DNA from: Dysosmobacter sp. Marseille-Q4140
GTDB lineage: Bacteria > Bacillota > Clostridia > Oscillospirales > Oscillospiraceae
DNA length: 64,000 nt
Assembly: GCA_018228705.1 (NCBI GenBank)
Contig: CP073694.1
Span: 1,178,001 to 1,242,000 of the forward strand
Reading direction: 5' to 3'
Part shown: piece by piece, positions 40,884-57,610 of the stretch
How positions within the stretch are numbered: position 1 is the stretch's first letter
Layout of the letters: each line of letters starts with the position of its first letter
The notes under the pieces: generated by a model
Database searches by the model: none
The model's input: only the letters and a program-made list of their open reading frames with translations
Told to the model about the DNA's origin: nothing
Translations under genes and position numbers: made by a program

Positions 40884-40903
40884 AAAAAGCCCCGCCGCAC
40901 TTG
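40884..40903. terminator. Left arm of a bidirectional terminator split by the inserted element
   Basis: A-rich run plus arm AAAAAGCCCCGCCGCA, then CTTG. The complementary arm TGCGGCGGGGCTTTTTT follows CTTG at the other end of the element (57590-57610). Joined, they give an 11-bp GC-rich stem with a CTTG tetraloop flanked by A- and T-runs, the shape of a two-way terminator for cstA and the convergent ZIP gene. Confidence 0.85.
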
Positions 40904-40925
40904 GCTTAACAGTGATAAGGAACTA
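40903..40925 (+). repeat. Left terminal inverted repeat of the element
   Basis: Begins GGCTTAACAGTGATAAGG and runs 23 bp, matching the complement of the right end with two mismatches. A second, inverted near-copy (CTTATCAACTGTTA at 40931-40944) lies just inside, so the end is itself palindromic. That is consistent with recombinase half-sites. Confidence 0.85.
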
Positions 40926-40968
40926 AATCACTTATCAACTGTTAGCTGACGGTTTTCGGGTGCATACG

Positions 40969-41011
40969 AAACTCCCGTCTGATTCCTAACAGGAATTGGG
41001 CGGGAGTTTTT
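40969..41011 (+). terminator. Intrinsic terminator just inside the left end
   Basis: Arms AAACTCCCG and CGGGAGTTTTT flank a 23-base loop. It would stop cstA read-through into the element, replacing the terminator broken by the insertion. Confidence 0.6.
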
Positions 41012-41045
41012 CTTGTTGACAGAGTTTATATTGGAGGATAGCATT

Positions 41046-41297
41046 ATGAAAACATTACTTTCCTGTGAATTTAACATGGATACCGGTTGCGTTGAACTAA
41101 GATATTCTGACGGCAGCATGATTTCCATCAACTGTACCGCCGTTGAGGATGAGGTGGCGAATAGTCGTTTCCAGCGGTCTGAACTGGACTGGCTCATCTA
41201 TAACGATCCACTGTCTTATGCAGATTTGATTTTGAATGGCGATCCAGAAGAATACCTGCGAACCGTAACGCAGACTCCGCAGTTAGATCTCGATTGA
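41046..41297 (+). CDS. Small conserved element protein (DUF6061-like)
   Basis: The 83-residue product starts MKTLLSCEFNMDTGCVELRYSDGSMISINC after GGAGG (ATG at 41046). It resembles small proteins often found on Firmicute mobile elements (I associate it with DUF6061 from memory). It is acidic, with no membrane span or DNA-binding motif. It reads inward from the left end, away from the restriction operon, and has its own terminator. Function is unknown. Confidence 0.65.
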   Translation: MKTLLSCEFNMDTGCVELRYSDGSMISINCTAVEDEVANSRFQRSELDWLIYNDPLSYADLILNGDPEEYLRTVTQTPQLDLD

Positions 41298-41304
41298 TAA
41301 GCAA

Positions 41305-41351
41305 AGCCGCCAGAGTCGAATCCAAGAGATACTGCTTCTGGCGGCTTTTTT
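41305..41351. terminator. Intrinsic terminator between the small ORF and hsdR
   Basis: Arms AGCCGCCAGA and TCTGGCGGCT around a 22-base loop, followed by TTTTTT on the plus strand and preceded by a short A-run. It terminates the small gene and perhaps hsdR from the other side. Confidence 0.75.
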
Positions 41352-54228: not shown

Positions 54229-55453
54229 CCAGGACTTGCCCACCCTCGATGATGTGGCGAAGGTGCAGGAGCATAACGAACGAGAAAAAGACAGCTACTC
54301 CAACCAGGATATTGATACCTCCCAGACCTACCGGAATATCCACTTCAAAGCTCCTACCGACAGCTATGCCGCTATGTTCGATCAGATGATTGCCGATGGC
54401 GTCATCTCCACCCGTGGCCTGAAAGCCGATGCGGTGAAATACGGGGAACTGATTTTTGATGTGAACTCCGCTTACTTTCACAATCACGGCGGATATGAAT
54501 ATGCCAAGCAATTCTACACCGACGCATACAAAGCTGCCGTAGAGATCGTGGGCGGTGAGCAGTATATCCTCTCTGCCGTCATGCACGCCGATGAGCGCAA
54601 CCGAGCCATGTCGGAAGCTCTGGGGCAGGATGTGTATCACTACCACCTTCATGTGGTCTATGTCCCGGTGGTGGAAAAACAGATTCTCTGGTCGAAGCGG
54701 TGCAAGGATAAGTCCCTTGTAGGTACAGTCAAGGAGACCATTATGCAGGTCAGCCGCAGTAAAAAGTGGGAATCCAAAGTTGCTCTGGATGAACAGGGCA
54801 ATCCGCTTCTGACCTCCAAGGGCAAGAAAGTTCTGCGGACATCGTACAGTGTCCTGCAAGACGATTTCTTCAACTATATGAAAGCTGCCGGATATACCGA
54901 TGTGGAGCGTGGAGAGCGTGGCAGCACTGAAGAACATCTGACTGTGACCCAGTTCAAGGTGGCACAGGAGCAGCAGCGGCTGGAAGATGTGACCGCCCAA
55001 ATCGCTCAGACAGAACAGGCGCTGGACACCGCACAGGCTGCCGTTGAGAAAAAGCACAAGGAGCTGCAATCCCTGCAAAAGCAGGCCAAAGAACAGCGTA
55101 CTGCCGCCCTGACGGTACAGGAAATCCGCTCCATGGGGAAAAAGACGATCACCGGCAACATCACTCTGACCCCATCCGAGTGTAACACGCTCAAGGATTA
55201 TGCGGCCAATGGGATTCTTGCCAAGGCGGAAAACAGCCGTTTGGAGGAAAAACTGCAACAAGCGCAAAAGAGCGTCGCTGTCTGGAAACAGCGATATGAA
55301 TTACTGAAAGAACAGGCACGGCCTTATCTGGAAGCTGTCAAGCTCGCACCCGAAAAGGTGCGGGCTTTTCTTGACGCCATTTTGACACGAACTCGGCAAA
55401 CAAAGCAACACGATCAATCTTCCCGCCGCAAATCGCAAGATATGGAGCTTTAA
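54188..55453 (+). CDS. MobV/Pre-type relaxase
   Basis: This protein nicks and covalently binds oriT to start conjugative transfer of the element. The 421-residue product starts MARNDGIDRTFARNQDLPTLDD. MobV motifs: VMHADERNRA with His133, and the metal triad HYHLHVVYVP (His151, His153, His155). A central coiled coil (about 255-310) and a helical C-terminus follow. Mobilizable Tn4451-type elements carry a related protein next to the recombinase. There are no coupling or secretion genes, so a helper element is needed. Confidence 0.88.
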   Translation: MARNDGIDRTFARNQDLPTLDDVAKVQEHNEREKDSYSNQDIDTSQTYRNIHFKAPTDSYAAMFDQMIADGVISTRGLKADAVKYGELIFDVNSAYFHNHGGYEYAKQFYTDAYKAAVEIVGGEQYILSAVMHADERNRAMSEALGQDVYHYHLHVVYVPVVEKQILWSKRCKDKSLVGTVKETIMQVSRSKKWESKVALDEQGNPLLTSKGKKVLRTSYSVLQDDFFNYMKAAGYTDVERGERGSTEEHLTVTQFKVAQEQQRLEDVTAQIAQTEQALDTAQAAVEKKHKELQSLQKQAKEQRTAALTVQEIRSMGKKTITGNITLTPSECNTLKDYAANGILAKAENSRLEEKLQQAQKSVAVWKQRYELLKEQARPYLEAVKLAPEKVRAFLDAILTRTRQTKQHDQSSRRKSQDMEL

Positions 55454-55472
55454 CAGAAAGGAATTTTTGCTT

Positions 55473-55778
55473 ATGACCAATCTGACAACAAAACTCAATA
55501 AGCTGATGCTCGATGATTCTCCTTCGGAAAAGCTGATTAACGCTTGTGCTGAAATCGATATTGAATCCTGCTTTGACCCGATTTTTGAACCGCCGATTGA
55601 TTTTCTGGAAGAATGCCGGAAACGCTGGGAAAACCTAATGAATCCTTTTATAGGTACGGTAGAACGAAAAATCGGAAATACCTGGTATCTGCTGGAGACT
55701 GTATGTGACGGAAATGAGCCGCTTACCCACAAGGTAAAACGGCTCATTTTCTCGGATAAGGAGGCGCTTTGTTCATGA
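55473..55778 (+). CDS. Unknown small element protein
   Basis: A 101-residue acidic protein from the ATG at 55473 ([29 protein letters not shown]), ten bases after AAGGA. It has no recognisable domain. It lies between mobV and the recombinase, on the same strand, in the position of small accessory genes of Tn4451-like elements. Function unknown. Confidence 0.55.
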
Positions 55779-55855
55779 CACAGACTCAAATTCATGCTAC
55801 AATATCACCATGCACACCGATTCTGTCAGCTGACCCAACCGTAAAGGAGGACGCT

Positions 55856-57526
55856 ATGTTGGATCAGCAGAAAATCACCATCCTGTACTGCCGCCTCAGC
55901 AATGAGGATGCACTGGATGGAGAATCAAATTCGATACAGAATCAAAAAGAGTTTTTAACCCGGTACGCAGCCGAGCATGGCTACACCAACCTGAAAATTC
56001 TGGTGGATGACGGATATACAGGAACCAATTTTGACCGCCCCGGCGTGCAGGAAGGCTTTGCACTGGTTAAGCAGGGGCTTGTCGGTTGCTGGCTGGTCAA
56101 GGATCTTAGTAGGTTTGGCCGAGATTACCTGACCGTTGGACAGTACACGGACATCATTTTCCCCAGCTACGATGTGCGTTTTATCGCCGTCAATGATGGT
56201 GTGGACAGTGAACGGGGCGACAGCGACGGCTTTGCCGCTATCCGTAATTTGTTCAACGAATGGTATCCACGGGACACCAGCAAAAAAGTCCGAGTCGTAT
56301 TCCGGCAGAAAGGCACCAGCGGAAAGCATCTGGGAAAACCACCCTATGGTTATCGCACTGACCCTGCCGATAAAGACCATTGGATCATTGACGAGGATGC
56401 CGCCCCAGTAGTCAAGCGCATCTTTGACTTGGCCATTGACGGTAAGGGGCCGGAACAGATTGCCCGTATACTGGAGAAGGATAAGGTGTTGACTACCAAG
56501 GCGCTGTATGCCAAACAGTCGGAAGACCATCCTGACCCCAAAAAGCGTAAGAAAATGCCGGAGCGCCCTTACCATTGGATTGGTCAATCGGTTGCGGGTA
56601 TTCTGGAGCGGATGGAGTACACCGGCTGTACCTGCAATTTCAAGACCTATTCCAAGTCCTATAAGCTGAAGAAGCGGATTCCCAATGCCATCGAAGATAT
56701 GTGTATCTTCCCTGATACGCAGGAAGCAATCGTTTCTCAGGCTCAGTGGGACAGGGTGCAGGAGTTGCGAAAAAACAAACGCCGTCCCACAAAAGCGGAA
56801 CGGCAGGGATTGTTCTCTGGGCTTCTGTTCTGTCCTGATTGCGGGAATAAGCTGCACTTTGCTACCTGCAAAAGCTTTGACGGCAAGCAAGACCATTATG
56901 TATGCTCCAGCTACAAAAGCGGTCGAGGCACCTGTTCTGCCCACTATATCCGGGAAGATGTACTGCGAGAACTGGTGTTGGAACGCATCCGTGCGGTCAA
57001 TGCCTATATCCGGCAGGATGTGGAAGGTTTTCAGGAAGAATGGCTGCAATGCCGCCGTTCCGATCAGGAACGCAACATCCGTGAAGATCGGAAGCGAGTG
57101 GAGCAGGCCAGGAAGCGGCTGACTGACCTGAATGTTCTTCTGTCCCGACTCTATGAGGATTTTGTCCTGGGCGATCTGAACAAGGAGCGGTACAAGAAAA
57201 TGACCGCCGATTACGAGGCAGAACAGGAACGGTTAAAGCTCGAAATCGAAGTGACGGAAGAATGGCTGGAAACACAGGAAACCATGAGTGCGGATGTGGA
57301 TGCCTTTGTCGCCCTGACTCAGAAGTATGTGGATGTACCGGAATTGACACCTACGATAGTCAATGAATATATCAAGAAGATTGAGGTGTTTGCGCCGGAC
57401 AAATCCAGTGGCAAGCGTGTACAGAAGGTAAAAATCTACTTCAACTTTGTGGATGACGTAGAGATTCCTGTGATTTCCGAGCCTGTTGTTGCGAAATCTA
57501 CCCCTGGACGCAGAAAAACGGCGTGA
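55856..57526 (+). CDS. Large serine recombinase (TndX/TnpX-like)
   Basis: This enzyme integrates and excises the element. The start is [20 protein letters not shown] (ATG 55856, five bases after AAAGGAGG), giving 556 residues. Order: resolvase catalytic domain with Ser15 (YCRLSNED) and [10 protein letters not shown], recombinase domain (about 165-310), zinc-ribbon-like [12 protein letters not shown]...YVCSSYK, then a coiled coil and a TndX-like (DUF4368-type) C-terminus. It ends 64 bases from the right terminal repeat. Such enzymes exchange at a two-base core, as suggested by the TT at both junctions. Confidence 0.93.
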
Positions 57527-57567
57527 CCATTGCGGTCACACCGTTCTCTGCCCCTCGCAAAGCTAAA

Positions 57568-57590
57568 TAGTACCTTATCACTATTAAGCC
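57568..57590 (-). repeat. Right terminal inverted repeat of the element
   Basis: The last 23 bases, ending AGTGATAAGG-type sequence on the minus strand (GGCTTAATAGTGATAAGG), mirror the left end. The inner part AATAGT and ACTATT is itself an inverted repeat. Confidence 0.85.
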
Positions 57591-57610
57591 TTGTGCGGCG
57601 GGGCTTTTTT
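57590..57610. terminator. Right arm of the split bidirectional terminator
   Basis: CTTG overlaps the junction (C57590 to G57593) and TGCGGCGGGGCTTTTTT follows. Together with the left arm at 40884-40903 it rebuilds one terminator. Alone it can still pair AAGCC with GGCTT as a weak hairpin. It is 11 bases past the ZIP gene stop. Confidence 0.85.

What the first reader, a model, noticed from the sequence alone, without database searches (positions are those of the whole stretch)
40884..57610. Mobile element inserted exactly in the loop of a bidirectional terminator
The left flank ends in A-run plus GCCCCGCCGCA and CTTG; the right flank begins CTTG plus TGCGGCGGGGC and a T-run. Deleting 40,903-57,590 plus one TT rejoins them as an 11-bp stem with a CTTG tetraloop, the two-way terminator expected between the convergent cstA and ZIP genes. 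The element keeps 23-bp imperfect terminal inverted repeats and a TT core at both junctions, as expected for its serine recombinase. Choosing terminator loops would be a safe, repeatable target: no gene is cut, and the hairpin's palindrome could itself be the recognition site.
Basis: partly seen in the sequence, partly recalled or inferred. Interest (0 to 1): 0.85.

Follow-up and report, generated by a model that had tools for sequence, protein, structure and literature searches.

The report
Mobile element that targets gene terminators
A 16.7-kb mobile DNA element of gut bacteria sits exactly in the middle of the hairpin that ends two neighbouring genes, and its relatives do the same in other genomes more often than not, most likely because their recombinase's target sequence looks like such a two-way stop signal; a minority land elsewhere, and some of these cut genes.

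Summary
The element is 40903-57590, with a TT core on each side. Removing it with one TT gives AAAAAGCCCCGCCGCA-CTTG-TGCGGCGGGGCTTTTT between convergent cstA and ZIP genes. By content it is an integrative mobilizable element (MobV-type relaxase, P4-type primase, type I restriction cargo) with a TnpX/TndX-type large serine recombinase carrying DUF4368.

Relatives settle most of the interpretation. Of 30 reconstructed sites with both ends on one contig, 18 are strict terminator hairpins with the core in the loop; background is 37 of 6000 positions. In the first 24 pairs, true halves complement each other better than re-paired halves (0 of 100,000 permutations). A congener of one host has the uninterrupted site, aligned without gaps, hairpin kept by paired substitutions.

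But 12 of 30 sites are not strict terminators, and some insertions cut genes. Terminator and non-terminator sites share one half-site motif (nnnTTtnnnGGnTTTT outward from the core), so the enzyme most likely reads duplex sequence that two-way terminators carry. Whether the hairpin adds anything is unresolved. All 39 left ends tested carry an inward terminator, so termination is replaced on that side. Ten paper searches showed no report of this.

The parts
40884..40899 (.). host: left arm of the split bidirectional terminator (AAAAAGCCCCGCCGCA)
   Evidence: pairs with 57594-57609
40901..40902 (.). TT core, left copy
40903..57590 (.). integrative mobilizable element, 16,688 bp
   Evidence: ends match relatives
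40903..40925 (+). left terminal inverted repeat
   Evidence: 21 of 23 positions match the right end, by eye
40968..41010 (+). element's own terminator-like hairpin, reading inward from the left end
   Evidence: such a hairpin in 39 of 39 left ends tested against 27 of 120 control windows
41013..41297 (+). small ORF, DUF6061
41418..44549 (-). type I restriction R subunit (cargo)
44542..45750 (-). type I specificity subunit (cargo)
45734..46543 (-). 269-aa ORF between the S and M genes, no Pfam match at E 0.001
46547..48211 (-). type I methylase M subunit (cargo)
48798..49988 (-). 396-aa ORF, weak match to sigma factor FliA/WhiG
   Evidence: below curated cut-off
50021..51181 (-). DUF6076 protein
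51295..51924 (+). DnaG-type zinc finger protein (primase part)
   Evidence: PF01807 above cut-off; dnaG model below cut-off
51899..53197 (+). P4-family primase
   Evidence: TIGR01613, above cut-off
53573..53839 (+). 88-aa ORF, weak DUF6471 match
   Evidence: below cut-off
54188..55453 (+). MobV-type relaxase (Mob_Pre)
   Evidence: PF01076, above cut-off; MobV model, below cut-off
55856..57526 (+). large serine recombinase: Resolvase, Recombinase, Zn_ribbon_recom, DUF4368
57568..57590 (-). right terminal inverted repeat
57591..57592 (.). TT core, right copy
57594..57609 (.). host: right arm of the split terminator; T-run continues to 57610

Best explanation
The element is an integrative mobilizable element whose large serine recombinase recombines the joined ends of an excised circle (dyad GGCTTAA..., two-base core, usually TT) with chromosomal sites made of two inverted half-sites, consensus nnnTTtnnnGGnTTTT outward from the core. 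A two-way intrinsic terminator with a short loop and about 11-13 bp to its T-runs is a natural near-perfect copy of that dyad: G-rich 3' arm plus T-run, mirrored as A-run plus C-rich arm. At the highest motif scores terminators are a main class of sites in the genomes, and the element enters their loops, splitting them. It brings its own terminator just inside its left end, so transcription entering from that side should still stop. Shown: boundaries, recurrence at predicted terminators, shared motif, conserved inward hairpin, one uninterrupted orthologous site. Inferred: the circle, duplex reading by the recombinase, activity, that the hairpins terminate, and any benefit to host or element.
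For: Recombinase relatives from 99% to 67% identity show it: by the strict cut, 18 of 30 same-contig and 8 of 16 different-contig sites are terminators (read off the table). In the first 24 same-contig pairs, 0 of 100,000 re-pairings reach the observed complementarity (293; best 277). With a looser cut, 20 of 30 true pairs against 137 of 870 swapped pairs and 107 of 3600 random flank positions are terminator-like. The half-site motif is alike at 26 terminator and 17 non-terminator sites. In 2.0 Mb scanned with a matrix from those 43 sites, terminators rise from 101 of 1018 positions at score 0 or more to 7 of 20 at 12 and 5 of 8 at 15; insertions (leave-one-out) are 25 of 34 and 23 of 29 terminators at 12 and 15. 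Uninterrupted site in a congener, gapless and 91% across the join, with two stem pairs changed on both sides (pairs by eye). Inward hairpin in 39 of 39 left ends tested.
Against: With a matrix trained on the 17 non-terminator sites only, terminators stay over-represented among insertions: 18 of 29 against 4 of 35 background positions at score 12 or more (p 4e-5), 16 of 23 against 3 of 9 at 15 (p 0.11). With the all-site matrix the excess is 25 of 34 against 7 of 20 at 12 (p 0.009), 23 of 29 against 5 of 8 at 15 (p 0.37). So the motif may not account for everything. A first scan of 0.8 Mb found only 1 terminator among 79 intergenic positions at score 4 or more with the non-terminator matrix. 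Numbers at high scores are small, neighbouring background positions are not independent, and only five genomes were scanned. The congener's uninterrupted site has AC where the core TT would be. No RNA ends, circle or activity were measured.
Confidence: 0.7

Rival explanations
1. The recombinase (or the target's state in the cell) senses the hairpin or cruciform itself, so that a palindrome adds to motif match.
For: Complementarity between true halves exceeds re-paired halves although both carry the motif. Residual enrichment of terminators at matched score, strongest with the non-terminator matrix. The core lies in the loop.
Against: Twelve of 30 same-contig sites are not strict terminators, and such sites carry the same motif. 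With the all-site matrix the excess is not significant at the highest scores (23 of 29 against 5 of 8, p 0.37), nor when same-contig insertions are set against intergenic background only (17 of 23 against 7 of 14, p 0.17). A serine recombinase acting on an unpaired loop has no precedent that I can recall.
Confidence: 0.2
2. Insertion is promiscuous, and only insertions in harmless places such as terminators survive.
For: Coding positions are 566 of 1018 background motif matches at score 0 or more (but 6 of 20 at 12), while 7 of the 40 sites examined have an ORF of 200 aa or more across the join.
Against: Selection for intergenic sites would not pick terminator loops to the base over other intergenic DNA; random TT/AA positions are strict terminators in 37 of 6000 cases against 18 of 30 insertions. 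The half-site motif is strong.
Confidence: 0.08
3. The GC-rich palindrome belongs to the element as an extension of its terminal repeats, not to the host.
For: Read from one window the two flanks do look like a longer inverted repeat.
Against: Flanks of relatives differ beyond the core while the element ends are conserved. A congener of another host has the uninterrupted site with its hairpin, and the G261 relative has a hairpin between cstA and ZIP.
Confidence: 0.02

Closest known systems
TnpX/TndX-type multi-targeting large serine recombinases (Tn4451/Tn5397 class, element names recalled; DUF4368 clade of Durrant et al. 2022, PMC10083194)
   Same: Same domains including DUF4368; nearest solved chain is TnpX (2mhc, catalytic domain); many targets, with an A-rich / two-base core / T-rich motif as reported for Cp36.
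   Different: Target here is a dyad with G pairs and T-runs spaced so that two-way terminators fit; a search of that paper's main text gave no occurrence of terminator, hairpin or palindrom (figures and supplements not seen).
IME_Rho_tet (PMC12904643)
   Same: Gut Bacillota IME with relaxase, serine recombinase and terminal inverted repeats; right end 81-90 bp after the recombinase stop in that paper, 64 bp here.
   Different: That family carries tetracycline resistance genes, and 116 of 256 matched sites are MAFF2 ORFs; its main text has no occurrence of terminator. The window element carries a type I restriction system and sits in a terminator. The two recombinases were not compared.
Group IIC introns
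   Same: Intrinsic terminators as landing places (passages of PMC3522654, which cites Robart 2007).
   Different: Retroelements that insert after the terminator; here a DNA recombinase enters the loop.
Insertion sequences in REP palindromes (PMC1525189, search listing only)
   Same: Palindromic, extragenic, repeatable targets.
   Different: Insertion sequences and REP repeats rather than a serine recombinase and terminators.
TnGBS / Mutator-like elements (passages of PMC3942029)
   Same: Targeting of a transcription signal (sites upstream of promoters).
   Different: DDE transposase; promoters, not terminators.

Membership tests
TnpX/TndX-like DUF4368 large serine recombinase | Resolvase, Recombinase, zinc ribbon and DUF4368 domains | tested here: met
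   all four above the curated cut-offs
TnpX/TndX-like DUF4368 large serine recombinase | Sequence relation to TnpX | tested here: met
   2mhc, E 3.5e-33, residues 5-119 (catalytic domain) only
TnpX/TndX-like DUF4368 large serine recombinase | Many chromosomal targets for close relatives | tested here: met
TnpX/TndX-like DUF4368 large serine recombinase | Two-base core kept at both ends | tested here: met
   TT at most paired sites, AA in G023 and G041, GT in G037
TnpX/TndX-like DUF4368 large serine recombinase | Excised circle and recombination in vitro | not testable with these tools
   needs bench work
Integrative mobilizable element | Integrase plus relaxase within one element | tested here: met
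Integrative mobilizable element | No conjugation pore of its own | tested here: met
   none of the element ORFs sent to Pfam matched a T4SS family; not every short ORF was sent
Integrative mobilizable element | oriT and transfer with a helper | not testable with these tools
   oriT not searched; transfer needs mating
IME_Rho_tet | Tetracycline resistance gene | tested here: not met
   no such match among the ORFs sent
IME_Rho_tet | MAFF2 ORF as main target | tested here: not met
   window site is the cstA-ZIP terminator
Intrinsic terminator (empty site) | G/C-rich hairpin followed by T-run, at gene ends | tested here: met
   prediction only
Intrinsic terminator (empty site) | Transcripts end there | not testable with these tools
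   needs RNA 3'-end mapping

The most novel reading that the evidence does not exclude
The recombinase prefers targets that can fold: the terminator's palindrome, extruded or transiently single-stranded behind RNA polymerase or at the replication fork, helps it find or open the site, so that transcription-termination structures are sensed as safe harbours over and above the duplex motif.
Probability: 0.2. Interest if true: 0.85.

Novelty: new variant of a known kind. Interest (0 to 1): 0.64.

Why it matters
It gives a multi-target serine recombinase family with a readable rule for where it goes, and the rule points at places between genes where an insertion should do little harm. It would explain how a promiscuous element can often spare its hosts without a single fixed att site, predicts landing sites in any genome, and points to recombinases that could carry cargo into terminators. 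The conserved inward hairpin suggests that the element replaces, on one side, what it splits.

Tried and rejected
Palindrome as part of the element: rejected. Exclusive terminator targeting: rejected, 12 of 30 same-contig sites are not strict terminators. An early conclusion from 0.8 Mb of background, that the motif hardly predicts terminators (1 of 79 intergenic positions at score 4 or more, non-terminator matrix), was weakened by 2.0 Mb and a matrix from all sites; both are reported. Exact window empty site: not found in 400 genomes. Phage records: three weak partial matches, 1-3% of the query; plasmids: none; one viral-collection contig. Further insertions: the fetches gave six new complete pairs, those none; eleven or more left ends of this type had no recombinase relative in the DNA fetched. 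The subclade ending TTTAGCTAA (six loci): right ends only, left ends not found. Rows dropped: in the motif and matrix work 43 of 46 sites were used (G011 is the same site as G009; G008 shares its right flank with G036; G047 pairs different contigs and was left out with them). The strict cut was applied to insertions by reading the table and was not applied to the swapped pairs. In one search two of 41 left ends were left out as too short. One paper search returned nothing because its terms were too narrow.
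Full report
What is there. The window holds a 16,688-bp element at 40903-57590 between cstA (+) and a ZIP-family transporter gene (-), which converge. Both ends carry a 23-bp repeat (21 matches, by eye) and a TT core. Joined, the flanks give a 16-bp stem with a CTTG loop that folds well on both strands. The element encodes a large serine recombinase with DUF4368, a MobV-type relaxase, a P4-type primase with a DnaG-type zinc-finger protein beside it, a type I restriction system and several proteins of unknown function, which makes it an integrative mobilizable element by content.

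Relatives. One scan of genome contigs found 89 stretches encoding recombinase relatives; the best 80 were kept, as 75 loci, mostly Clostridia by their record titles. I looked at 64 of them past the recombinase stop; in 54 the end resembles the window's, in six it is another end (...TTTAGCTAA), and four distant ones (41-42% identity) were not resolved. Beyond the core the sequence differs between most loci; L009 and L011 share theirs, as do L008 and L042. Left ends were sought with a 21-base pattern and up to three mismatches in the genomes of these loci (29 of 30 and 22 of 28 with a match, one genome in both calls) and in 300, 297 and 348 genomes of three families (39, 29 and 44 with a match, some of them chance). 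Pairing gave 30 insertions with both ends on one contig (24, window included; six) and 16 with ends on different contigs, which are less certain.

Terminators recur. With a hairpin-plus-tail score in the style of TransTermHP (written from memory), 20 of 30 same-contig sites pass a loose cut, 13 of them in both directions, and 9 of 16 different-contig sites pass, 7 in both; swapped halves pass in 137 of 870 cases (53 in both) and random flank positions in 107 of 3600 (12 in both). With a strict cut (hairpin score -9 or lower, tail as before), read off the same table, 18 of 30 and 8 of 16 pass. Some stems are unbroken: G032, G019, G007, G334, G002b, and, on different contigs, G001, G003, G041 and G046. 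In the first 24 same-contig pairs no permutation of 100,000 matched the true complementarity (G009 and G011 are the same site). Strict terminators occur with recombinases from 99% (G032) down to 67% (G057) identity.

Empty sites. For the G032 insertion a congener, G400, has the uninterrupted site: 185 bases aligned without a gap at 91% across the join. By eye, two stem pairs are changed on both sides so that pairing is kept, and the bases at the core are AC, not TT. For the G051 insertion, beside a tRNA gene, 34 congeners were searched besides the host; the 11 whose loci were read have a hairpin at that place, with varied sequence. For the window, the element-free G261 has convergent cstA (79% identical protein) and ZIP (57%) with a GC-rich hairpin between; the window's exact empty site was not found in 400 genomes.

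What is recognised. Read outward from the core, half-sites share nnnTTtnnnGGnTTTT, and this is so at 26 terminator and at 17 non-terminator sites. The element's own end (GGCTTAATAG...) has the TT at positions 4-5 and the G at 10 in register, as one would expect if one enzyme reads both; this is by eye. I scanned 2.0 Mb from five genomes: two that carry the element (G258, G009) and three others of host families. With a matrix from all 43 sites, the share of strict terminators among matching positions climbs with score: 101 of 1018 at 0, 39 of 190 at 6, 18 of 63 at 9, 7 of 20 at 12, 5 of 8 at 15; insertions (leave-one-out) are 25 of 34 terminators at 12 and 23 of 29 at 15. So much of the preference follows from sequence at high stringency. 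The excess that remains is p 0.009 at 12 and p 0.37 at 15. With a matrix from the 17 non-terminator sites only, it is larger (18 of 29 against 4 of 35 at 12, p 4e-5; 16 of 23 against 3 of 9 at 15, p 0.11). Against intergenic background only, with the all-site matrix and same-contig insertions, it is 17 of 23 against 7 of 14 (p 0.17). Neighbouring background positions are not independent, and the ORF mask is rough. The excess could be a true effect of the palindrome, a better fit of terminators to features that 17 sites do not capture, or selection. I keep it open.

Not a perfect safe harbour. Twelve of 30 same-contig sites are not strict terminators. Of 40 sites examined for ORFs (the six were not), seven have an ORF of 200 aa or more across the join; by eye four look like real genes, G014 and G023 (same contig) and G028 and G040 (different contigs), G039 may be one, and G005 and G016 look spurious.

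A terminator brought along. The window element has a 20-pair hairpin with T-run at 40968-41010 reading inward. All 39 left ends with enough sequence have one within 250 bp, 62-125 bp in, against 27 of 120 random windows; many of these ends are close relatives of each other. Insertion thus splits one terminator and supplies another on the left. On the right, the element end AAGCC and the host's GGCTT plus T-run form a short hairpin, which may end the recombinase transcript; this was noted in the window only.

Known and new. The recombinase is of the TnpX/TndX type (TnpX; TndX by the clade described below) and, by DUF4368, of the multi-targeting clade described by Durrant et al. (PMC10083194; section 11 and passages read). 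Their Cp36 motif, A-rich, two-base core, T-rich, is of the same sort. IME_Rho_tet (PMC12904643; abstract, sections 9, 15, 19, 20 and passages read) is an IME of similar make in similar hosts, with another cargo and another main target. Group IIC introns use terminators, but insert after them (passages of PMC3522654). Passages of PMC5357655 and PMC13137831 have no occurrence of terminator. Ten paper searches listed no paper that by title or abstract start reports a serine recombinase family entering terminator loops; the library lacks most subscription journals. I rate it a new variant of a known kind. Confidence in the best explanation was lowered slightly on checking (0.72 to 0.70), because terminators are a main class only at the highest background scores, and the selection rival was raised from 0.06 to 0.08.

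Noticed in passing
window 57586-57606: Element end AAGCC plus host GGGGCTT and T-run form a new short hairpin across the right junction, a possible terminator for the recombinase gene.
   Followed up: no
window 45734-46543: A 269-aa ORF without Pfam match lies between the specificity and methylase genes of the type I restriction cargo.
   Followed up: no
G023, G041, G037: The core dinucleotide varies between relatives (AA, AA, GT instead of TT).
   Followed up: no
L028, L034, L036, L053, L055, L071: A subclade with another right end (...TTTAGCTAA); some of its right flanks also have G/C followed by a T-run. Left ends not found.
   Followed up: partly
L176, L179, L182, L183 and others: Left ends of the same type with no recombinase relative in the DNA fetched: larger elements, other recombinases or remnants.
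   Followed up: partly
G032 and G400: The stretch left of the G032 site contains a dispersed palindromic GC-rich repeat with dozens of matches in both genomes, REP-like.
   Followed up: no
L167, viral contig IMGVR_UViG_2833239190_000005: A viral-collection contig ends 67 bases after the recombinase coding match of a 98% relative, close to the expected element end.
   Followed up: no
G009 and G011: Two genomes have the element at the same non-terminator site; possibly inside another mobile element, not tested.
   Followed up: no
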